This document shows, piece by piece, positions 6,782-16,242 of a DNA stretch of 21,374 bases. The position numbers and the translations under genes are program-made. Under the pieces are notes generated by a model. The model ran no database searches and was not told the DNA's origin. It saw only the letters and a program-made list of their open reading frames with translations. Source of the DNA: a virus; the IMG/VR virus record IMGVR_UViG_3300042691_000922, positions 1 to 21,374 of that record; one strand, written 5' to 3'. The first letter of the stretch is position 1. Each line of letters starts with the position of its first letter.

Positions 6782-7435
6782 ATGATACTCCTAGATGTGA
6801 TCACCGAAGTTAGGAAGATGCTGCAAGATACGAGCACTGAAGCGTCTCTTCAGCGGTATTCGGATGCGACACTTCTAGGGTTTGCCAATCAGACTCTGAA
6901 GCGCATGGCTCTTATACGCCCAGATTTGTTTGCGTATATCGGCGAGATCACTTGTACAACTAATGCGACGTTACAGTCAGCACCGTCTGATTCCATCAGG
7001 ATCATGGAAATCTTCAGGATTAAAGACGGTCCCGGTATACGCGAGACCAATAGAGAGATTCTGGATCAGACATATCCCGATTGGGTTACAGAAGAAGCTA
7101 GTGCCTGCATTAGCTGGATGCGCCATGCCCGTAATCCTAATCGATTCTTTATCTACCCTCAGTCGCCTGCTGGGCAGATTCTCATCGGTGAGTACTGCCA
7201 GACACCTCCGACTTATGCGTCATCTACAACTGTGGCCCTTCTTCCAGATGCGTATTTACCAGTTGTGGTAGACGGTACTTTATTCCTTGCTGAGTCTATC
7301 GATAACGAACATGTCAACTCTAATCGTGCTCAACTTTTCCAGCAGTCTTTCATACAGACTCTAACTACTTCCTTCCAATCTAGATCAGTTACAGATACAG
7401 AAGAAGCCGGACTAACTAAGAAGGAAGTTGTGTAA
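6782..7435 (+). CDS. Head-tail adaptor-like protein (DUF6682-like)
   Basis: A 217-residue protein. The N-terminal helices VITEVRKMLQDTSTEASLQR, then YSDATLLGFANQTLKRMALI RPDLF, follow the pattern of phage connector proteins that dock under the portal (I associate it with DUF6682 from memory). The central segment has beta strands with a P-rich loop (NPNRFFIYPQSPAGQILIGE), and the C-terminal half is helical (a DGTLFLAESIDNEHVNSNRA segment). Adaptors of this type form a dodecameric ring between portal and tail nozzle. The stop overlaps the next ATG by one base (TAATG), so the two are probably made in fixed ratio. Confidence 0.75.
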   Translation: MILLDVITEVRKMLQDTSTEASLQRYSDATLLGFANQTLKRMALIRPDLFAYIGEITCTTNATLQSAPSDSIRIMEIFRIKDGPGIRETNREILDQTYPDWVTEEASACISWMRHARNPNRFFIYPQSPAGQILIGEYCQTPPTYASSTTVALLPDAYLPVVVDGTLFLAESIDNEHVNSNRAQLFQQSFIQTLTTSFQSRSVTDTEEAGLTKKEVV

Positions 7436-8088
7436 TGGCTACACGGACCTTTATCTCCCTCGAAAGCAAGCTGTCTCCTAGTGTTCCGGGGTGTCCTAGA
7501 CCTACTATCCAGCAGTATGTCAGGGATGCGGCAATAGAGGTCTGTGAGAGAACCCTCGTATGGCGCTACGAACAGCCTCTTGTTCGGCTCACTCCCGGCG
7601 TGTACGAGTATGAGTACGAGGCTCCGACTGATTCTGAGGTTGTAGCTGTCATCCATGCAGCGGTAAACGGTTCTAAGATATCAGCGATGTCTCAGGATGA
7701 GATACACAGAGTGTACCCAGACTGGCCTTCTACTGATGCTACAGTCCGGTCTACTCCACGATTTATTTCGCAGTTTGACCCAGATCATTTTATTATCGTG
7801 CCTGTACCAGACTCATCCGTTGCCTACGACATTAAGATGTTCTTGGCTTTGAGGCCAACGCCAGACTCGACAGGTATGGATAAGACAGCATTTGATGAGT
7901 GTGAGCAGCTTATCATGCACGGTGCATTGCAACATTTGCTGGTGCTGCCTAATAAGTCATGGACAGATAGAGACCTTGCTACCTACCATGCCAAGCAGTA
8001 TTCCTACAAAACTGCTAGCCGTAAGGCAAAGGCTAATCTAGGTGTTGCTAGGGCGTCACTTAGCGTACAAATGCGTCCGTTTGCATAG
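7435..8088 (+). CDS. Second head-tail connection/tail protein
   Basis: 217 residues, coupled to the previous adaptor gene by a 1-base overlap with AAGGAAG just upstream. The segment SVPGCPRPTIQQYVRDAAIE (about residues 16-35) followed by CERTLVWRYEQPLVRLTPGV and a beta-rich middle with a repeated P-x-x-D pattern recurs in phage structural genes. The C-terminus is helical and basic (YHAKQYSYKTASRKAKANLG). It is similar in size and design to its neighbour (helix, P-rich beta core with FISQFDPDHFIIVPVPDSS, helix), so the pair may be distant relatives that form stacked rings. A tail-tubular protein A-like role is an alternative reading. Moderate confidence in function, high in gene. Confidence 0.65.
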   Translation: MATRTFISLESKLSPSVPGCPRPTIQQYVRDAAIEVCERTLVWRYEQPLVRLTPGVYEYEYEAPTDSEVVAVIHAAVNGSKISAMSQDEIHRVYPDWPSTDATVRSTPRFISQFDPDHFIIVPVPDSSVAYDIKMFLALRPTPDSTGMDKTAFDECEQLIMHGALQHLLVLPNKSWTDRDLATYHAKQYSYKTASRKAKANLGVARASLSVQMRPFA

Positions 8089-8432: not shown

Positions 8433-8890
8433 GCAACATAAAGGTAGCAGTAAGCGTTGTTGATTCTTCCGGCATCATAGCAAATGTAGCTATAAGTGCG
8501 GGTAATAACTTTACTGTTGCTGCTACCTATGAGCCGACGATAGTTTCGCTTTCATACATCCTTATAAAAGCTGACGTGTTTAATCCGTTCGCTCTGTTTG
8601 ATACTGCTAGTACATCGGAAATTGTACTACGTCATCCTAAACCAGCGTATTCCGATTCAGCGGTAACGTCTGACCCAGATGTCAAGATTGTTAGTTCGAT
8701 CCTTTCTGATTCCGCTGTAACGTCTGAGCTATTTGCCTCGACACTAGTTAAGAATGTAGACTTTAACACAGCCACAGCAGAGGTTGATTCCGAACCGGTG
8801 ACAACTTCAGAGGTGTTTGTCCTTACACTAAACGCTCTGGACTCTAATGCGTTTAATGGGTATAGCTTTAATAGCGCAAGTTTGAACTAA
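8429..8890 (+). CDS. Repetitive Ser/Val/Thr-rich tail-region protein, unknown
   Basis: 153 residues, starting in an ATGA overlap. The N-terminal half is beta-like. The middle contains an imperfect repeat (YSDSAVTSDPDVKIVSS then LSDSAVTSELFAS then SEPVTTSEVFV) built from a short D-S-A-V-T-S core. The C-terminus has the aromatic FNGYSFNSASLN pattern. The repeats are encoded by similar DNA (8651-8671 and 8705-8725). No family is recognised. Its place between a BppU-like protein and a fibre-associated protein suggests a minor tail or fibre-linker protein. It has no signal peptide or membrane segment. Confidence 0.7.
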   Translation: MSNIKVAVSVVDSSGIIANVAISAGNNFTVAATYEPTIVSLSYILIKADVFNPFALFDTASTSEIVLRHPKPAYSDSAVTSDPDVKIVSSILSDSAVTSELFASTLVKNVDFNTATAEVDSEPVTTSEVFVLTLNALDSNAFNGYSFNSASLN

Positions 8891-8900
8891 GAGGTTTGTT

Positions 8901-9347
8901 ATGGCTAAAGATTTTGTAAAAGCTGAAGGCAAAGTTACTCTTGTGCTGACTGGTTCAGATGGAGCGGTCAAAGAAACACGGGAAGTAGAAAATCTTGTTG
9001 TTCAGGTAGGGCTAAACTATATTGCTTCACGTATGAAGGACGCCACTGCTACGGCGATGACTCATATGGAAGTAGGCACATCGTCTACTGCTGCCAGTCT
9101 AGCTCAGACAACTCTGGTTGCTGCTGTATCGGCTAGTCGCACAGCCCTTACAAGTACTACTGTAACAACAAGTTCCGTTGCTTACGCCTGCACATTTGGG
9201 GCAGGGGTCGGTACAGGCGCTCTTACAGAAGCTGGTATCTTCAACGCTGCTTCAGCCGGTACTATGCTTTGTCGGACGGTGTTCTCTGTTATTAACAAAG
9301 GCGCAGCCGATACCTTGACCATAACGTGGACCATAGCAGTGAGTTAA
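8901..9347 (+). CDS. Tail-fibre-associated structural protein
   Basis: 148 residues. It begins with VKAEGKVTLVLTGSDGAVKE and then EVENLVVQVGLNYIASRMKD, followed by a Thr/Ser/Ala-rich beta region with TEAGIFNAASAGTMLCRTVF and a final NKGAADTLTITWTIAV. I recognise this as a recurring small structural protein found beside phage tail fibres, with a conserved AGIFNA and INKGA-DTLTITW end. It is probably a trimeric or collar-type tail component. The ATG follows an AAGAGG motif, and the stop is separated by one base from the fibre gene. Exact role not established. Confidence 0.75.
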   Translation: MAKDFVKAEGKVTLVLTGSDGAVKETREVENLVVQVGLNYIASRMKDATATAMTHMEVGTSSTAASLAQTTLVAAVSASRTALTSTTVTTSSVAYACTFGAGVGTGALTEAGIFNAASAGTMLCRTVFSVINKGAADTLTITWTIAVS

Positions 9348-9348
9348 C

Positions 9349-10911
9349 ATGGCTATTTTAGTCGCAAATAACGCAACCAGTTATCTCGCTGGCACTCTTA
9401 CAGCAGTAGCCACTAGTCTTACTGTATCAAGTGGGACGGGTACGCTATTTCCGACAATATCCGGCAGCGATGTGTTCTATGTAACGCTGACAAATACCTC
9501 GAATCAGAACGAGATTGTGAAGGTAACAGCCAAGGCTACCGATACTTTTACGATTGTCCGCGCACAAGACGGCACTTCTGCGCGAGCCTTTGCGATTGGC
9601 GATAAGGTAGAACTCAGGGTCATAAAAGTAGTATTTGACGATAAAGCCTCACTTACCAACGATCAGACTTTTAGCGGGACGAATGTCTTTTCTGGTTCAA
9701 CAACAACGGACTTAGTTCGCATTACTCAGACAGGAACTGGAAATGCGTTTGTTGTCGAGGATAGCACGAATCCTGACGTTAGTCCTTTTGCAATCGTTGC
9801 AAGTGGAAATGTAGGTATCGGTACGACCTCGCCACAAGCTAAACTATCCGTGTCCAATGCTGGTGCAGCAGGATTAGAATTTTTTACAAATTATCCCGGT
9901 GGCGGTGTTGGGACTTACATTCAAAGTTACAACAGAAGCGGCACTGCTTATGTAAGCACAGCATACGATGCAACAGACCATTCGTTTAGAACGAGCGGAA
10001 CTGAACGTATGTTTCTTAACTCGTCTGGCAGCGTCGGGATCGGGTCGGCGTCGCTGTCCAACATAAATTTACGAGTATCAAAAACTCTCACCGGAGGCTC
10101 TAATGCCTTTGGATATTTTTCTGACTCAGCAGTCCAATCAGATGTGACTTTAGGTGCCTTTTATTTCAGCACAAGTGCCACTGCCGCATCGGGTACTTTG
10201 GGTAATGTGAACCACTTTAGGGCCAGTCAGGCTTCATTTGGGACTGCTACATTTTTAAACCAGTTTGGGTTTATTGCAGAAAATAGTTTACTTGGTGCTA
10301 CAAATAACTACGGATTTATTGCGTCTGACACTGCGGCAGTAACGGCGGGTAAGACTGCCTACGGGTTCTATTCAGCAGTAAACACCGCCACAGGCGGCGG
10401 CACTACGTATGGCTTCTACGCTGTCGGGACTGCGCCAAACTATTTTAATGGCAATGTCGGGATTAATGAGACAAATCCCACACATGAGTTAACTGTCGGT
10501 GGAACGGCTAGTGCAACATATTTTAATCTTGGGGGTAATACTGCATCCGCTCCAGCAGTTGATGCGGCAATAACAAGACCAGCAAATGGTACTCTTGCGT
10601 TCATTGCAAATGCTGCTGAACGTCTCCGCATTGGGTCGTCAGGGCAAATTGGCATTGGCGGTGCAAACTACGGCACGTCCGGTCAGATACTCACATCAGG
10701 TGGTGCGGCAGCGGCTCCGTCTTGGGCAGATGCTCCCGCCAGTGGTGCTACGGGCGGTGGGTCTGATGCTGTGTTTGTTCTGAACGACAAGACCATTACG
10801 ACCTCGTACACGATTGCTTCTACTAAGAACGCCAGCTCTGTTGGCCCTTTAACTATTAACTCGGGCGTAGTGATTACAATCTCGTCTGGCTCACGTTGGG
10901 TGGTTCTCTGA
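9349..10911 (+). CDS. Tail fibre/adhesin with GIG-type repeats
   Basis: 520 residues in three parts. Residues 1-96 are the N-terminal module shared with two later proteins (VANNATSYLAGTLTAVATSL, then the EIVKVTAKATDTFTIVRAQD block), presumed to attach it to the virion. Residues ~103-475 hold repeated beta-helix-like elements: NVGIGTTSP (about 154-162), RMFLNSSGSVGIG, GNVGINETNPTHEL, and RLRIGSSGQIGIG. The last ~42 residues (TTSYTIASTKNASSVGPLTI... SGSRWVVL) form a short C-terminal tip domain common in phage fibres. The Peptidase S74 autochaperone often found after GIG repeats is not present. The stop overlaps the next start (TGATG). Confidence 0.85.
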   Translation: MAILVANNATSYLAGTLTAVATSLTVSSGTGTLFPTISGSDVFYVTLTNTSNQNEIVKVTAKATDTFTIVRAQDGTSARAFAIGDKVELRVIKVVFDDKASLTNDQTFSGTNVFSGSTTTDLVRITQTGTGNAFVVEDSTNPDVSPFAIVASGNVGIGTTSPQAKLSVSNAGAAGLEFFTNYPGGGVGTYIQSYNRSGTAYVSTAYDATDHSFRTSGTERMFLNSSGSVGIGSASLSNINLRVSKTLTGGSNAFGYFSDSAVQSDVTLGAFYFSTSATAASGTLGNVNHFRASQASFGTATFLNQFGFIAENSLLGATNNYGFIASDTAAVTAGKTAYGFYSAVNTATGGGTTYGFYAVGTAPNYFNGNVGINETNPTHELTVGGTASATYFNLGGNTASAPAVDAAITRPANGTLAFIANAAERLRIGSSGQIGIGGANYGTSGQILTSGGAAAAPSWADAPASGATGGGSDAVFVLNDKTITTSYTIASTKNASSVGPLTINSGVVITISSGSRWVVL

Positions 10912-11534
10912 TGTCTAAAATTGTACTCACCTCTGATCCTCTCAGCACAACAACAGCGGGGGCGTTAGAATACACTTCTCCTGTTATCTATGGCACACCA
11001 GTGGGGGCACAAAGGGGCGTCATTCCCAACTCGCAATTTTATCGGTTAAATGCTGATTATGTAGGGACAGCATCAACTAGCGCACAAGGCATATATGGGT
11101 CATCGCTTGGTGTAACGCTGTCCTCAAGCACAGTTTATGCGTTTGAAATGGTTGTTGTTTTTTCAAAAACAGCTACCGCAACAGCGCATAGTTTGTCTCT
11201 TAGTTTTGCTGGAGCAGCTACAATTAACAATATTTTATATGGCGGCGTGTACAATGCTCTCTCCGGTGTTTTTACATCAGGTTCAGGCAGTGGCCCGCTT
11301 ACATTTTTTTCAAACACAGCCGCAGCAGCTTCTATGGGCAATGCTAGTGCAACCGCTAATTGGAATTGGCCAATGCAATTAAGAGGCACTGTCAACATTA
11401 ACGCTGGCGGTACGTTTATCCCACAATACACTACATCAGTGTCCGTTGGCCCTTATTCAACCCTTGCAGGGTCGTATTTCTTAATCTACCCAATTGGCTC
11501 CGCAGGGCTTATTAACGTAGGAACATGGGCATGA
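10911..11534 (+). CDS. Tail fibre-module protein, copy 1 of a tandem duplication
   Basis: 207 residues from the ATG at 10911 (TGATG overlap with the fibre stop). A TTG at 10896 would add five residues but lies inside the previous gene and is less likely. The protein is clearly paralogous to the next one: IVLT-D-L near the N-terminus, GAQRGVIPNSQFYRLNADY, SSSTVYAFE, TINNILYGGVY, and GGTFIPQYTTSVSVGPYST followed by SYFLIYPIGSAG and VGTWA. The last 40 residues are best conserved. It is beta-rich and lacks the N-terminal attachment module, so it may be a fibre tip subunit or a receptor-binding partner. The family is a phage tail-associated type I have seen, not functionally named. Confidence 0.8.
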   Translation: MSKIVLTSDPLSTTTAGALEYTSPVIYGTPVGAQRGVIPNSQFYRLNADYVGTASTSAQGIYGSSLGVTLSSSTVYAFEMVVVFSKTATATAHSLSLSFAGAATINNILYGGVYNALSGVFTSGSGSGPLTFFSNTAAAASMGNASATANWNWPMQLRGTVNINAGGTFIPQYTTSVSVGPYSTLAGSYFLIYPIGSAGLINVGTWA

Positions 11535-12157
11535 GTTCAATTGTTCTCACCGCAGACACTCTCCTTGGCACGACACCCGCTATCGGCTCTGTTGAGTTCG
11601 ATGGAAAGGCGTTCTACAACACGGCGCAAGGCACGCAGCGCGGGGTCATACCCGGCGCTCAGTTTTTTCGGTTGGAATCTAACCTTGCGGGCGCAAATGT
11701 CAGCACGGTGCAGAGCGTGTTTGGCGTTAGCGTCACGTTGTCTACTTCAACGGTGTACGCTTTTGAGGCCATGTACTATTTTAACAAAACAGCAGGGGCT
11801 ACATCGCATACTCTTGGCATTGGGTATGGTGGGTCGGCAACACTCAATAATATATTATGGAACGCGGTTGGAATTGATACTTCTGCCACACCACCACTTA
11901 GAAGCACTAACTTTGAAGAAGTTGCATCTACTTCTGCGGCTAATGTAGCATTTACAGCAGCGGTAGCTTCGGCAGCTTCGACAGTGGTTGCAAACATTAA
12001 AGGCATTGTCAGCATCAATGGCGGCGGTACGTTTACGCCTCAGTACACGCTCTCTGCGGCCCCAGGTGGTGCGTATAGCACTATGGCGAATAGTTACTTC
12101 CTGATCTACCCAATCGGCGCGTCCGGCGCTAACATTTCCGTAGGAGCTTGGGCATGA
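11531..12157 (+). CDS. Tail fibre-module protein, copy 2 of a tandem duplication
   Basis: 208 residues from the ATG at 11531, which forms an ATGA overlap with the previous stop. An in-frame ATG at 11525 is only 2 bases from the TAGGAA site, so 11531 (8 bases away) is preferred and also aligns with copy 1. Shared blocks with copy 1 are QRGVIPGAQFFRLESNLAG, STSTVYAFE, TLNNILWNAV and GGGTFTPQYTLS followed by SYFLIYPIGASG and VGAWA. The copies have diverged strongly in the middle, so they may bind different ligands or assemble as a heteromer. Its C-terminal codons contain the TAGGAG site for the next gene. Confidence 0.82.
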   Translation: MSSIVLTADTLLGTTPAIGSVEFDGKAFYNTAQGTQRGVIPGAQFFRLESNLAGANVSTVQSVFGVSVTLSTSTVYAFEAMYYFNKTAGATSHTLGIGYGGSATLNNILWNAVGIDTSATPPLRSTNFEEVASTSAANVAFTAAVASAASTVVANIKGIVSINGGGTFTPQYTLSAAPGGAYSTMANSYFLIYPIGASGANISVGAWA

Positions 12158-12687
12158 CCGTAACAATTGATGGCAGCGCAAGCGTTACGATTAACTCAGG
12201 CGCGATACTGGGGCTTACCTCTGCTACGGCTCAGGCATCTACGTCAGGTACTAGCATTAACTTTACGGACATACCGTCATGGGTAAAGCGTATTACTGTG
12301 ATGCTTGGTGGTGTTAGTTTGACTACAACAGCGTCAAACATAGGCGTTAGAATTGGTTCAGGTAGTTTTGAAGCAACTGGTTATGTTGGTGGGTATGGTG
12401 TTACTACTACCGTCCCTGCCGCAAACGCTGCTGCATCTGATCAATATATAATACTTGGGAGTATTTCCGCTGCTGCTGATACCCTGAACGGTGCGTTAAT
12501 CATAACCAATGTCTCTGGCAATTTATGGGTTGCTCAAGGCACATTTTTTAGAGATTCTGGGACTACTGATGCGGCGTTTATGGTTGCGGCTTCAAAAACT
12601 ACTTCTGGGGTTCTTGACCGGGCACAAGTAACGCTAACCTCTACCGGAGCCTTTGACGCTGGCACTATCAACATTATGTACGAGTGA
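12154..12687 (+). CDS. Fibre-tip-like protein with SWVKRITVMLGG motif
   Basis: 177 residues from the ATG at 12154 (ATGA overlap), preceded by TAGGAG at 12141-12146, 7 bases away. A TTG at 12148 could add two residues but is less likely. The block FTDIPSWVKRITVMLGGVSL (about residues 38-57) is a recognisable element in many phage tail and fibre C-terminal domains, and the rest is beta-rich with a final QVTLTSTGAFDAGTINIMYE strand. In other phages this domain is fused to longer fibres. Here it is a separate gene after the duplicated pair, so it probably acts as an individual tip or adaptor. Confidence 0.78.
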   Translation: MTVTIDGSASVTINSGAILGLTSATAQASTSGTSINFTDIPSWVKRITVMLGGVSLTTTASNIGVRIGSGSFEATGYVGGYGVTTTVPAANAAASDQYIILGSISAAADTLNGALIITNVSGNLWVAQGTFFRDSGTTDAAFMVAASKTTSGVLDRAQVTLTSTGAFDAGTINIMYE

Positions 12688-12751
12688 TCTGATGGAACTT
12701 AACAAACTAAAAACTATTAGCCTTACTGTCTATCTGTGATAAGGAATCACT
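12688..12751 (+). other. 64-bp intergenic gap within the fibre block
   Basis: One of the larger gaps in the fibre block. It holds an AAGGA site for the next gene and a 15-codon ATG frame (12692-12739) with no supporting features. I see no clear hairpin or promoter. Confidence 0.5.
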
Positions 12752-13768
12752 ATGGGAATCGCACTTGTTAAGAACAATGCTTTCAGTACGCTGCTCTCAA
12801 GTATTGCTTCGGGGGCCACTAGCCTTACCGTGGCTAGCGGAGAGGGTGCTCGGTTTCCAACTATCTCAAGCGGTAATTTCTTCTATGCCACCCTTATCAA
12901 TAGCTCCAATCAATATGAAGTTGTTAAAGTAACAGCTAGGGCTACGGATGTTTTTACAATTCTCCGTGGTCAAGATGGGACTGCAGCCAGTGCCTACACT
13001 GCCGGTGATCGAATTGAGCTACGTCCCACTGCCGCATTGTTTGACGATAAGCTATCTTTAGGCGGAGGCACTCTTACTGGCGCACTCGCTGTCCCATCTG
13101 GAGCAATAACTACTCAAGTTCCACAGGTTCAGGAAGTCGTTAAGAAAACCGGCGATACGATGTCGGGTACTCTCATTGTGCCTGAACTGCGCGGGCCATC
13201 CAATGTTATCAATGTTCCGACAGGACATAAGATTACTACTACGGGGTTAGGTTCTGTAACCGGAGCAACAGTAGGTTCAATCGTGGCACCGGGTATGATC
13301 ATCCAAACCCAGACATTGTTTGTTGATGCCGTTACGACCTATTCAGCCGCAGGGGCAGGCGGAGAAGCCGAGATTTCAAGTTTTGCTTCTAGTTTCACCC
13401 CAAAATTTTCTACTAGTAAAGTACTCATAGGGTGGGGGTTATCAGGTGAAACTAGCGACGGTAATACCTTCCATATAAAACGAAACGGGACTAAAATAGG
13501 TATTAACTCTACAAGTTCTGACTACTGGTCCGGTTGGATGCCAGATTTTTACGACGCCAATGCTGCTTCCACACCTCAACATAGGTATATGGCATATGTT
13601 GACTCTCCTGCTACAACGTCTGCAATCTCCTATACGTTTTGGTTTAGAACATCCGGTACAGCCGCTAGAACTTTCTATCAAAATCGTGCGGTGAACAATA
13701 CTAATGCTGGGGCGGCAGACTATGAACTTGTCACAAGCTATCTAATCATTCAGGAGATCACGCAATGA
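12752..13768 (+). CDS. Tail fibre/adhesin with beta-sandwich tip
   Basis: 338 residues. Residues 1-101 are the shared attachment module (VKNNAFSTLLSSIASGATSL, then VASGEGARFP, YEVVKVTARATDVFTILRGQ and AGDRIELRPTAALFDDKLSL). Residues ~102-178 contain a fibre linker with the KKTGDTMSGTLIVPELRG element. From ~179, PGMIIQTQTLFVDAVTTYSA, then SSFTPKFSTSKVLIGWGLSG, FHIKRNGTKIGI, and MAYVDSPATTSAISYTFWFR outline the small beta-sandwich tip common in marine phage fibres. The stop overlaps the next gene (ATGA), which is a chaperone-like protein. This is one of three fibres that share an N-terminal module, so they may sit at equivalent sites on the virion. Confidence 0.88.
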   Translation: MGIALVKNNAFSTLLSSIASGATSLTVASGEGARFPTISSGNFFYATLINSSNQYEVVKVTARATDVFTILRGQDGTAASAYTAGDRIELRPTAALFDDKLSLGGGTLTGALAVPSGAITTQVPQVQEVVKKTGDTMSGTLIVPELRGPSNVINVPTGHKITTTGLGSVTGATVGSIVAPGMIIQTQTLFVDAVTTYSAAGAGGEAEISSFASSFTPKFSTSKVLIGWGLSGETSDGNTFHIKRNGTKIGINSTSSDYWSGWMPDFYDANAASTPQHRYMAYVDSPATTSAISYTFWFRTSGTAARTFYQNRAVNNTNAGAADYELVTSYLIIQEITQ

Positions 13769-14076
13769 GGTACGATATTACTCATGCGATTCAGTCTCTT
13801 TGTCCCAACGCAACTTGGCGGTTGCACGGGTCGGATTATTCCGGTCTTGTCTGGCTTGATATTCAGATTGATAAACCTGAAGAAGCGGCGCTCCTAGCAG
13901 AAGTTGATCGCCTTCAGGCTGCATGGGACCGGAATGAATACTCACGTAAACGCGCTGCTGAGTACCCGCCAATATTTGACTATCTTGATGCCGTTGTTAA
14001 GAATGATCAGGGTCAGATGAACCAGTACATATCTGACTGCCTTACCGTAAAAGCTAAGTACCCAAAGCCGGAGTGA
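13765..14076 (+). CDS. Tail-fibre chaperone/XkdW-like protein
   Basis: 103 residues, starting in an ATGA overlap with the beta-sandwich fibre. The C-terminal part, RAAEYPPIFDYLDAVVKNDQ and then a helix ending in VKAKYPKPE, matches a motif found in phage tail-assembly chaperones and XkdW-like proteins (Y-P-[PS]-I-x-D-x-L-D-A ... V-K-A-K-Y-P-K). The N-terminal half (residues 1-60) is an alpha-beta region with a W-rich strand (WRLHGSDYSGLVWLDIQI) that may read the fibre partner. Such genes usually follow the fibre they help fold. Here two fibres flank it, so either could be its client. Confidence 0.75.
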   Translation: MRYDITHAIQSLCPNATWRLHGSDYSGLVWLDIQIDKPEEAALLAEVDRLQAAWDRNEYSRKRAAEYPPIFDYLDAVVKNDQGQMNQYISDCLTVKAKYPKPE

Positions 14077-14080
14077 TCTA

Positions 14081-15418
14081 ATGGGCGTCCAAGTAGCCAA
14101 TAATGCTTTTAGTACGCTCTTCAGCGCGTTAACCTCTGTAGCCACAACCATGACCGTGGCTTCTGGTCATGGAGCTAGGTTTCCATCTGCGTCTGTTGCT
14201 TCCGGTAATTACTTTTATGTTACTCTTATCAAGTCCAGCGGCGTTACCGAGATTGTAAAAGTTACTGATAGATCGACTGACGTATTCACAATCGTTCGTA
14301 GTCAAGATGGTACGACAGCAACTACGTTTACTGCAGGTGACAGAGTAGAACTCCGCCCAGTGGCTGCACTATTTAACGAACTACCAAACCGGCTTCTTAT
14401 CACTGCGGACTATACAGACCTGTCTGTAACAAATGGTAAGCTGGATAATATCGTTAGTGCAATCGGTCCAGTCGGTGGTTTAGGTAAGTTCCTCACAGCC
14501 ACTATAAATTCTAAAGGTAGAATCACAGCACTCACCGAGACAAACGGTATCGTCCAGACAGATACTTTTGCGTTCACAACTTCAGGCGCTACCCAGACTT
14601 GGACTAAACCCACAAGTGCCGGGTCTCTTATACGTATCCAATGCTGGGGCGGCGGTGGCGGCGGAGGTAGAGCAGCTTCAGGTGGAGGCGGAAGCGGCGG
14701 TGGCGGTGGTGGGTATCTTGAACGCTGGATGAGTTTGGCTGACGTGACATCAACTGTATCTGTCGTTGTAGGAGGAGGCGGAGCGGGTTCAGCAGCATCT
14801 AATACAGCCGGAACCGCCGGAGAGAATACTACATTCGGTGCTTACGTAACCGCTTACGCTGGGGGCGGCGGAGGCGGTGCTGTTGGAGGCGGCGGAGGCG
14901 GAGGCGGCGGAGAGATGTCTGCCGGAGTTAGCGGGACTTCAACTTCTCCCGGAGCTGGCGGTGCTATTGGCGGAGGGCATGGGGCGTTTAATAGTTCAGG
15001 AAGTGCTGTGGCTACTTCTACTCAACGCGGTGTTCTCAACACAGCATATACAGACTTCCCAGCAACAGCCGCAGCCGCAGTCGGTAATATTCCTTGGGGC
15101 TTTGGCAATGATGCCCGTAGCGTATTTGGAGGCGGAGGCGGAGGCGGCGGAAATGGCGGTGCTGTATCCGGTACTGAAAGTACAGGCGGCTTTGCTGTTT
15201 TTGGTGGCGGCGGAGGCGGCGGAGGGTACAACGGTTCACAAGCCAACAACGGTTCTGTTCGCGGTACTAGTCTATACGGCGGAAGCGGCGGGGACGGCGC
15301 TACAGATTCAGGTACTGGTTCCAACGGGACAACTCCTGCCGGTGGCGGGGGAGGTTCAGAACTTGGCAACGGCGGCGCTGGCGGCAACGGTCGTGTAATT
15401 GTTACAGTCTATGTATAA
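14081..15418 (+). CDS. Polyglycine-rich tail adhesin
   Basis: 445 residues. Residues 1-100 are the shared N-terminal module (VANNAFSTLFSALTSVATTM, TEIVKVTDRSTDVFTIVRSQ). Residues ~115-160 carry a fibre shaft element (GKFLTATINSKGRITALTE). From ~168, TSGATQTWTKPTSAGSLIRI and QCWGGGG open a glycine-rich domain with many runs of 5-9 Gly (residues 190-196, 201-211, 261-277, 350-360, 375-382, 421-425), ending in the strand GRVIVTVYV. This is the recognised Gly_rich_2-type pattern, and polyglycine-II packing is known from T4-like phage adhesins such as S16 gp38. It is a credible receptor-binding tip. Extreme GGN repetition invites recombination. Confidence 0.88.
   Translation: MGVQVANNAFSTLFSALTSVATTMTVASGHGARFPSASVASGNYFYVTLIKSSGVTEIVKVTDRSTDVFTIVRSQDGTTATTFTAGDRVELRPVAALFNELPNRLLITADYTDLSVTNGKLDNIVSAIGPVGGLGKFLTATINSKGRITALTETNGIVQTDTFAFTTSGATQTWTKPTSAGSLIRIQCWGGGGGGGRAASGGGGSGGGGGGYLERWMSLADVTSTVSVVVGGGGAGSAASNTAGTAGENTTFGAYVTAYAGGGGGGAVGGGGGGGGGEMSAGVSGTSTSPGAGGAIGGGHGAFNSSGSAVATSTQRGVLNTAYTDFPATAAAAVGNIPWGFGNDARSVFGGGGGGGGNGGAVSGTESTGGFAVFGGGGGGGGYNGSQANNGSVRGTSLYGGSGGDGATDSGTGSNGTTPAGGGGGSELGNGGAGGNGRVIVTVYV
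14639..15415 (+). repeat. GGN-repeat (polyglycine-coding) region
   Basis: This stretch is dominated by GGC/GGA/GGT codons. An exact 21-bp direct repeat occurs at 14891-14911 and 15131-15151, 240 bp apart and therefore in frame. A related G-rich tract lies around 15204-15226. Confidence 0.85.
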
Positions 15419-15422
15419 GGAG
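15417..15422 (+). promoter_or_regulatory. Ribosome binding site with several candidate starts
   Basis: AAGGAG overlaps the previous stop. ATG 15423, ATG 15426 and GTG 15429 are all in frame, at 0, 3 and 6 bases distance. The GTG has the best spacing. Confidence 0.55.
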
Positions 15423-15428
15423 ATGATG

Positions 15429-15608
15429 GTGGCTACCTCAGCAGAAATTGAAAAGCAGCTCCTTACACATGAAGCGGTCTGTGCAGAACGTTACAATACG
15501 TTTATAACGCGTGTGGATAGGTTAGAGAAGATCATGCTTAACGCAGCCGCAGCATTGATCCTAGGTATGGCTGGCATACTCGCTACTATAATTATGAAAG
15601 GGGTTTGA
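15429..15608 (+). CDS. XhlA/holin-associated-like membrane protein
   Basis: 59 residues from the GTG at 15429 (longer if ATG 15426, 15423 or 15411 is used). The N-terminal 35 residues form a charged, heptad-like helix (EIEKQLLTHEAVCAERYNTF, then ITRVDRLEKIML). A single hydrophobic segment follows (NAAAALILGMAGILATIIM) with a short KGV tail. This coil-plus-one-TM layout resembles XhlA-type lysis proteins and other small phage membrane helpers. It begins the lysis and membrane cassette. The mechanism is inferred from architecture; homology is weak. Confidence 0.65.
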   Translation: MATSAEIEKQLLTHEAVCAERYNTFITRVDRLEKIMLNAAAALILGMAGILATIIMKGV

Positions 15609-15611
15609 ACT

Positions 15612-15770
15612 ATGGCTAAGATGATCATGGAATACGGCGGTAAAGAGAAGTACTCATCTAAAGGTATGATGAAAAAGCATGAAGGCAAAGAGACGCCTAT
15701 GAAAGAGAAGATGGAATACGGTATGAAAAAAGGCGGCATGGTTAAGCCAAAGATGAAGAAGAAGATGTGA
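15612..15770 (+). CDS. 52-aa Met/Lys-rich miniprotein
   Basis: A short gene with ATG at 15612, AAAGGGG about 8 bases upstream, and a stop one base before the next ATG at 15772. It translates to MAKMIMEYGGKEKYSSKGMM, then KKHEGKETPMKEKMEYGMKK, then GGMVKPKMKKKM: 11 Met and a very high Lys content in 52 residues. An internal similarity (MEYGGKEK and MEYGMKK) is visible. The KKGGMVK-like end resembles short tails seen on other aquatic phage miniproteins. It fills the only gap in this tight cassette, so it is very probably translated. No function is assigned; RNA/DNA binding or membrane-surface contact by the basic C-terminus is possible. Confidence 0.72.
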   Translation: MAKMIMEYGGKEKYSSKGMMKKHEGKETPMKEKMEYGMKKGGMVKPKMKKKM

Positions 15771-15771
15771 T

Positions 15772-16242
15772 ATGGACCCATTCACTCTCATTGCTGGAGC
15801 TACGGCGTTGTATAACGGCATTAAAGGTGCTGTAGATTCCGGCCATGAGATGTTGGATGTTGCCGAAAAGGTTGGTAGTTTATTTGGGCGTATCGCCCAG
15901 ATCACTCAACTTACATCAGGTAAGCGAAAGAAAAAACTATTCCAATCTCAAGCTGAGTATGAAGCCGAAGCCATAAAGTTATATACGCTTAAGGCTAAAG
16001 CACAGCAGCTTCAGTTGGATACCCGCAACTTATTTGTAGGTGCATATGGCATCGCTGCGTGGACCTCTATCCAAAAAGAGGTTACCGAAATGAGGAAAGA
16101 GGCGGCTCGTCAAGCCGCAGCAGCAATGAAAGAAGCTGAGGAAAACCGCAAAGACTTGATTATGGGTCTTTGGTTAATCGGTGCAGTTATATTGTTCTCT
16201 GTATGTGTCGGTATCGGGATGGTGGTGTTTACCCAAAAATGA
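15772..16242 (+). CDS. C-terminally anchored membrane protein
   Basis: 156 residues. The N-terminus MDPFTLIAGATALYNGIKGA leads into helices with LFGRIAQITQLTSGKRKKKL. The middle has FQSQAEYEAEAIKLYTLKAK and VGAYGIAAWTSIQKEVTEMR, and residues 104-128 are strongly charged and Ala-rich (RKEAARQAAAAMKEAEENRK). The only clear TM segment is at the C-terminus (about 130-153). The family is one I recognise from aquatic phage genomes without an assigned function. It is not a classical i-spanin, because the membrane anchor is at the wrong end. It may be a virion-internal or lysis-regulating protein. The ATGA overlap couples it to the lipoprotein gene. Confidence 0.78.
   Translation: MDPFTLIAGATALYNGIKGAVDSGHEMLDVAEKVGSLFGRIAQITQLTSGKRKKKLFQSQAEYEAEAIKLYTLKAKAQQLQLDTRNLFVGAYGIAAWTSIQKEVTEMRKEAARQAAAAMKEAEENRKDLIMGLWLIGAVILFSVCVGIGMVVFTQK

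What the first reader, a model, noticed from the sequence alone, without database searches (positions are those of the whole stretch)
9349..15418. Three adhesins share one attachment module but have different tips
The proteins at 9349, 12752 and 14081 open with the same ~100-residue module (VxNNAxST, VTLxxxSxxxEIVKVTxRxTDVFTIVRxQDGT, AGDRVELRP). Each then has a different end: GIG repeats with an SGSRWVVL tip, a beta-sandwich, and a polyglycine adhesin. The divergence among modules suggests old duplications, not a recent assembly artefact. A virion could carry three receptor-binding proteins at the same docking sites, giving broad or switchable host range. That such N-terminal modules dock fibres is established for phages in general; that these three compete or coexist here is inference.
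Basis: partly seen in the sequence, partly recalled or inferred. Interest (0 to 1): 0.62.

Follow-up and report, generated by a model that had tools for sequence, protein, structure and literature searches.

The report
Three phage fibres, one shared socket
This uncultured phage encodes three tail fibres that start with the same 100-residue plug, which a solved relative uses to hold fibres on its tail; only the first fibre's outer part is swapped between strains, and lab-studied relatives already carry three or four such fibres.

Summary
The proteins at 9349, 12752 and 14081 (F1, F2, F3) share a ~100-residue N-terminal module at 52-64% identity, then diverge. The module is homologous, in sequence and predicted fold, to the only resolved part (~116 of 439 residues) of the tail fibre in the cryo-EM portal-tail complex of podophage GP4 (8jov). 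Two window adaptor proteins and the nozzle protein also match GP4 chains, so "docking module" now rests on a solved homologue.

The arrangement is not unique. Bcep22-like phages JC1, BcepIL02 and CSP3 carry 3-4 tail-fibre genes, all with this module, between adaptor and nozzle genes.

New here: (1) between strains the F1 module is kept (93-100%) but everything from codon ~113 to the F2 ribosome-binding site is replaced, while F2, gp13765 and F3 stay; (2) the F1-F2-F3 triad persists in phages with only 58-65% nozzle identity; (3) all modules are under purifying selection; (4) "SGSRWVVL" is a conserved C-terminal cap, not a specific tip; (5) relatives encode the module as stand-alone 105-117-residue proteins.

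Unproven: that all three sit in one virion or at the same sites. In JC1 virions only the first paralogue was detected.

The parts
9349..9684 (+). F1 docking module (codons 1-112); retained when the rest of F1 is exchanged
   Evidence: 52% id to F2 and F3 modules; 93-100% aa id between strains, break at codon ~113; dN/dS 0.016-0.145
9685..10770 (+). F1 variable middle (GIG-repeat stalk in this allele)
   Evidence: replaced in L010/L011/L122 (324 aa) and L022/L126 (237 aa); partly different in L124 (577 aa)
10771..10911 (+). F1 C-terminal cap, ~46 aa ending SGSRWVVL; conserved type across alleles
   Evidence: 40-69% id between caps of otherwise different alleles; PHROG 36881 matches residues 467-520
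10911..11534 (+). cassette gene, 207 aa, no module; 46.5% paralogue of the next gene; probable accessory tip protein
   Evidence: role inferred from position and exchange
11525..12157 (+). cassette gene, 210 aa, no module; probable accessory tip protein
   Evidence: role inferred
12148..12687 (+). cassette gene, 179 aa, no module; same family as cassette genes in L006 and L010
   Evidence: 40-52% id to L010/L006 cassette proteins
12752..13051 (+). F2 docking module
   Evidence: AF2 block means 91-97 for residues 11-90, Foldseek to 8jov_1 TMt 0.77, rmsd 1.8
13052..13768 (+). F2 stalk and tip, retained between strains and in L253
   Evidence: whole-length 93.8% id to L010, 50% to L253; dN/dS 0.09-0.19
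13765..14076 (+). 103-aa protein between F2 and F3 in every relative with the triad; candidate fibre assembly partner
   Evidence: conserved in L010, L007, L164, L253; dN/dS 0.027
14081..14383 (+). F3 docking module
   Evidence: dN/dS 0.013-0.077
14384..15418 (+). F3 glycine-rich adhesin tip (PF21722 at residues 167-444)
   Evidence: conserved in L010, L007, glycine-rich in L253 and L164
6782..7435 (+). tail adaptor, homologue of 8jov_2 (12 copies)
   Evidence: phmmer 9e-8
7435..8088 (+). tail adaptor, homologue of 8jov_G gp81 (12 copies)
   Evidence: phmmer 5e-19; SU10_adaptor PF24175
17793..20213 (+). tail nozzle, homologue of 8jov_A (6 copies)
   Evidence: phmmer 3e-66

Best explanation
F1, F2 and F3 are three tail-fibre proteins of a podovirus whose tail core is of the GP4/Bcep22 type. 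Each is held on the tail by the same ~100-residue N-terminal plug (shown by homology to the docked part of the GP4 fibre). Each presumably forms a homotrimer (inferred from 18 = 6 x 3 chains in GP4). F2 and F3 carry constant tips and act as standing adhesins. F1 is the variable arm: its plug and C-terminal cap are kept, while its middle and the following module-less tip genes are exchanged between strains by recombination at the module boundary, changing receptor specificity (exchange shown, effect on receptors inferred). Because all three copies are intact, syntenic and under purifying selection over long divergence, the virion most likely displays more than one of them. Whether they share the six nozzle-type sites or use different rings of the tail is open.
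For: Module vs 8jov_1, E=1.1e-19; AF2 module vs the 116 resolved residues of 8jov_1, rmsd 1.8 A, 45% id. Adaptors and nozzle match the same solved complex. Same gene order in JC1, BcepIL02 and CSP3, whose 3, 4 and 4 fibre genes all carry the module. F1 break at codon ~113 in L010/L022/L126, new sequence up to the F2 ribosome-binding site; replaced cassette genes match tail-fibre PHROGs and lectin-like Pfams. Triad F1-F2-gp13765-F3 in L164 and L253. dN/dS 0.013-0.165 for all modules and 0.09-0.19 for F2/F3 tips.
Against: No virion data for this phage. In JC1, purified-virion mass spectrometry listed gp56 but not gp57 or gp59, so not every module protein is easily found in particles. Trimer state, site and stoichiometry were not modelled. 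Many relatives manage with one or two modules.
Confidence: 0.66

Rival explanations
1. The three paralogues do not compete: each is specialised for its own ring of the tail (for example nozzle sites for one, adaptor/collar sites for another), so one virion carries three fibre types at fixed positions.
For: GP4 was published as having three types of tail fibres (title cited; site assignments from memory). PMC11966396 describes two fibre proteins in GP4-like phages: a conserved 439-aa one (same length as 8jov_1) and one with a variable tip. JC1 mass spectrometry finds gp56 while the solved GP4 chain is more like gp57. In Lessievirus the second- and third-position paralogues form well-supported orthologous classes. 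Hardies (PMC10386132) suggests a link between dual adaptor rings and extra fibre genes.
Against: No structure shows two module-bearing proteins at different sites; the JC1 gp56 query found no module-bearing chain in 8jou. Modules cluster by phage lineage, not by position, between Lessievirus and the window group.
Confidence: 0.4
2. Mixed occupancy: F1, F2 and F3 homotrimers are loaded at random on the same six equivalent nozzle sites, so virions are mosaics.
For: The modules are 52-64% identical; symmetry-imposed maps such as 8jov could hide mixtures (inference).
Against: JC1 virions yielded only one of three paralogues.
Confidence: 0.3
3. Only one paralogue is a normal virion part; the others are minor, conditional or reserve genes expressed or assembled in special cases.
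For: JC1: gp56 only; many relatives have a single module.
Against: Strong purifying selection on all three modules and on F2/F3 tips; the triad is kept across species.
Confidence: 0.22
4. Heterotrimeric fibre: one copy each of F1, F2 and F3 modules make a mixed trimer at each site.
For: Three paralogues and, by analogy with GP4, trimeric sites.
Against: The closest solved fibre is 18 copies of one protein; relatives have 1, 2 or 4 modules; long unrelated stalks are unlikely to co-trimerise (inference).
Confidence: 0.04
5. Assembly artefact or chimaera of population variants.
For: Several contigs from other samples end inside the F1 cassette (L015, L016, L005), a sign of mixed variants.
Against: A separate 39.6-kb contig is 99.98% identical through the whole region; same triad in L164 and L253.
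Confidence: 0.02

Closest known systems
Tail fibre of Ralstonia podophage GP4 in PDB 8jov (Zheng et al. 2023, J Mol Biol 435:168258; paper itself not held)
   Same: Same N-terminal module by sequence and fold; two adaptors and nozzle also homologous.
   Different: 8jov shows one module-bearing protein in 18 chains; the window has three, with other stalks and tips.
Tail fibres of Bcep22-like Lessievirus phages JC1, BcepIL02, CSP3
   Same: 3-4 adjacent fibre genes, all with the module, between dual adaptor genes and nozzle gene.
   Different: Tips differ (Peptidase_S74 in JC1 gp57 and gp59); the fibre copies form a separate clade; the window portal gave no BLASTP hit to the JC1 portal; cassette exchange was not examined there.
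HMO-2011-like podoviruses
   Same: Portal homologue (27% over 83%).
   Different: HMO-2011 lacks the module, and its scanned stretch gave no nozzle or adaptor hit.
Phage fibres with exchanged tips under a conserved N-terminus (general pattern, described in PMC10386132)
   Same: Conserved docking end, exchanged C-terminal end.
   Different: Here three paralogues sit side by side and only one is seen exchanged between close strains.

Membership tests
GP4-type docked tail fibre (8jov chain 1) | Homologous N-terminal module | tested here: met
   phmmer 1.1e-19 over residues 2-96
GP4-type docked tail fibre (8jov chain 1) | Same fold of the docked part | tested here: met
   AF2 F2 module vs 8jov_1: TMt 0.77, rmsd 1.8, 99 columns
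GP4-type docked tail fibre (8jov chain 1) | Homologous nozzle and adaptors in the same genome | tested here: met
   3e-66, 5e-19, 9e-8
GP4-type docked tail fibre (8jov chain 1) | Homotrimer, six per virion, bound at the nozzle | not testable with these tools
   no complex prediction or virion available
Bcep22-like multi-fibre arrangement | 3-4 module-bearing fibre genes between adaptor and nozzle genes | tested here: met
Bcep22-like multi-fibre arrangement | Modules of one clade with Lessievirus | tested here: not met
   Lessievirus + GP4 modules form their own clade (99/95 and 100/96)
Lessievirus (as a virus genus) | Homologous portal | tested here: not met
   no BLASTP hit (E<=0.01) of the window portal to the JC1 portal
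Lessievirus (as a virus genus) | Homologous major capsid protein | not tested
   the JC1 capsid was not in the comparison set
HMO-2011-like podovirus | Homologous portal | tested here: met
HMO-2011-like podovirus | Same tail core and fibre module | tested here: not met
   no module, nozzle or adaptor hit in 34 kb of HMO-2011
Three receptor-binding proteins on one virion | All three present in purified virions | not testable with these tools
   nearest data: JC1 mass spectrometry found only gp56

The most novel reading that the evidence does not exclude
The module is a general-purpose socket protein: in this phage group it occurs fused to constant tips (F2, F3), on a linker whose cap may carry separately encoded, exchangeable tip proteins (F1 cassette), and as tip-less stand-alone proteins (105-117 aa) in other lineages. 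A phage would keep two fixed adhesins and one plug-in adhesin on one tail, changing receptor by swapping a cassette that starts just after the socket.
Probability: 0.3. Interest if true: 0.62.

Novelty: new member of a known kind. Interest (0 to 1): 0.42.

Why it matters
It ties a common N-terminal domain of environmental phage fibres to a solved docking site. It also shows that multi-adhesin tails with this socket occur in at least two phage lineages with copy number 1-4. The clear split between two conserved adhesins and one exchanged adhesin makes a testable case of division of labour in host recognition, and gives a simple sequence marker (the module) for finding candidate receptor-binding genes of uncultured phages.

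Tried and rejected
Assembly artefact: rejected (separate contig 99.98% identical; triad in L164 and L253). Recent duplication: rejected (module DNA only about 70% identical between F1 and F2 copies; AU test p=0.046 against the window-species modules being one exclusive clade, few columns). DNA inversion switching: no inverted repeats found in 8800-16000; a diversity-generating retroelement was not tested separately. Gp8901 as the GP4 gp80 fibre: only a weak profile match; the AF2 model instead matches a HFTV1 tail chain. Gp8097 and gp8429 vs JC1 gp55 and gp54: no usable match. F1/F2/F3 as one-to-one orthologues of JC1 gp56/57/59: not supported, lineages cluster apart. The GP4 genome record and the GP4 and Gill 2011 papers are not held. 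HMO-2011 as source of the tail: rejected. A genome scan with a wide module alignment could not be run for lack of a conserved stretch; a closer set gave five loci.
Full report
WHAT IS THERE. The window is a virus record of 21,374 bases holding a podovirus head-and-tail region on the + strand: portal 371, capsid 3772, adaptors 6782 and 7435, small virion-type genes 8097/8429/8901, then F1 (9349), three module-less genes (10911, 11525, 12148), F2 (12752), gp13765, F3 (14081), several small genes, endolysin 17183 and nozzle 17793. F1, F2 and F3 share residues ~1-100 at 52-64% identity and nothing significant beyond. No other window gene compared has the module.

WHAT THE MODULE IS. PHROG tail-fibre families match it in all three proteins. 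Against solved structures the only strong hit is chain 1 of 8jov, the portal-tail complex of podophage GP4, a 439-residue 'putative tail fiber protein' present as 18 chains (E=1.1e-19). An AlphaFold2 model of F2 has high confidence in the module (block means 91-97 for residues 11-90) and low confidence in the tip. Foldseek places the module on 8jov_1 with rmsd 1.8 A and TM 0.77 over the 116 residues of that chain that are resolved. The docked, ordered part of the GP4 fibre is thus this module. The window's two adaptors and its nozzle also match the same complex (E=9e-8, 5e-19, 3e-66). The docking role is an inference from homology, but a strong one. The placement of the GP4 fibre at the nozzle and the description of its other fibre types come from memory of Zheng et al. 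2023, whose title only is confirmed here.

IT IS NOT A LONE CASE. In the cultured Bcep22-like phages JC1, BcepIL02 and CSP3 every annotated tail-fibre gene (3, 4 and 4) begins with the module, between adaptor and nozzle genes. PMC9144972 states that each such phage encodes 3-4 tail fibre proteins. In 29 loci (some from the same phage) holding an adaptor-side gene (adaptor or gp8901 homologue) and the nozzle, the module count is 1 (9), 2 (13), 3 (5) and 4 (2). In larger records it is 0-3. A locus binned as Helicobacteraceae has four. Trees put Lessievirus and GP4 modules in one clade (99/95; 100/96) and the window-type modules elsewhere. Multi-copy sets therefore arose separately in the two lineages, or were homogenised within each.

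AGE OF THE TRIAD. L164 (55.4-kb record, nozzle 65% identical) and L253 (nozzle 58%) have the same order F1-F2-gp13765-F3. F2 is 50% identical to L253 over its whole length, tip included. F3 is glycine-rich in both relatives; the F1 tips differ (only residues 4-99 align), with RCC1-like repeats in L164 and a glycine-rich domain in L253. F3 of window and L253 group together (95/83), and a single clade of the window-species modules is rejected at p=0.046 with few columns. Old duplication is supported.

ONE VARIABLE ARM, TWO CONSTANT ARMS. Close strains (about 85-97% DNA identity in shared parts) from other samples keep the F1 module at 93-100% protein identity, then lose all similarity at codon ~113. 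Different DNA follows up to the F2 ribosome-binding site, where identity returns. Four F1 alleles were seen: 520 aa (window), 577 aa (L124, partly similar), 324 aa (L010/L011/L122) and 237 aa (L022/L126). The genes after F1 change with it, and some match tail-fibre PHROGs or lectin-like Pfams. By contrast F2, gp13765 and F3 stay. dN/dS is 0.013-0.165 for the modules, 0.09-0.19 for F2 and F3 tips and 0.044 for the nozzle. All three genes are thus maintained. That the F1 cassette sets receptor specificity is inferred.

DO THEY COEXIST? Unknown. JC1 virions analysed by mass spectrometry gave gp56 (7 unique peptides) but not gp57 or gp59. GP4 shows 18 copies of a protein that aligns best with JC1 gp57. 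Over the group, two different paralogue classes have therefore been seen in particles, but not yet in one phage. GP4-like YL phages have a conserved 439-aa fibre and a second fibre with a variable end, which echoes the constant and variable arms here. Hardies and colleagues (PMC10386132) noted that Bcep22-like phages have two adjacent adaptor genes and, for another dual-adaptor phage, asked whether that arrangement is linked to an excess of fibre genes. The window also has two adaptor genes. I therefore rate shared-site mosaics and separate-site fibres as similarly likely and neither as shown.

STAND-ALONE MODULES. At least two families of relatives encode the module alone. One is 106-109 aa ending ...LLL or LLLY (L033, L046, L047, L068, L078, L140-L144, L146), usually followed by a second module gene. 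The other is 117 aa ending ...TTGKAIAMAIVFGG (L172, L186, L191, L199, L232). Both end in a proper stop and are under purifying selection (dN/dS 0.02-0.3). A docking piece without a tip must do something by itself: carry a separate tip protein, or fill sites. This is the most novel lead.

VERDICT. A real, well-conserved, ordinary-in-kind but informative arrangement: a new member of the Bcep22/GP4-type multi-fibre design, with clear evidence that one of three arms is the exchanged one.

Noticed in passing
L033, L046, L047, L068, L078, L140-L144, L146 (106-109 aa) and L172, L186, L191, L199, L232 (117 aa): The docking module is encoded as a stand-alone protein with a conserved short C-terminal tail, in two separate families, under purifying selection.
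   Followed up: partly
10911-12157: gp10911 and gp11525 are tandem 46.5% paralogues without PHROG hits or Pfam hits above cut-off; L124 has two members of the same family.
   Followed up: partly
8901-9347: gp8901, highly conserved (74% mean column identity over 15 relatives), models at pLDDT 88 and matches a HFTV1 tail chain (9h4p_BD, E=1e-7); weak PF12571 tail-fibre N-terminus.
   Followed up: partly
13765-14076: 103-aa protein kept between F2 and F3 in all relatives with the triad; candidate fibre assembly factor.
   Followed up: no
6782-8088: Two adaptor genes side by side, as in Bcep22-like phages, whereas the portal is HMO-2011/Rhizobium-phage-like: head and tail may have different ancestries.
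   Followed up: partly
11950-12110: Contigs from other samples (L015, L016, L005) end inside the F1 cassette, a sign of several cassette variants in one population.
   Followed up: no
L006:1-560 vs window 12113-12650: A strain nearly identical downstream has a replaced middle of gp12148 only, so exchange also happens at the single-gene level.
   Followed up: no
L258: Contig binned as Helicobacteraceae with four module-bearing open frames of 250-350 aa.
   Followed up: no
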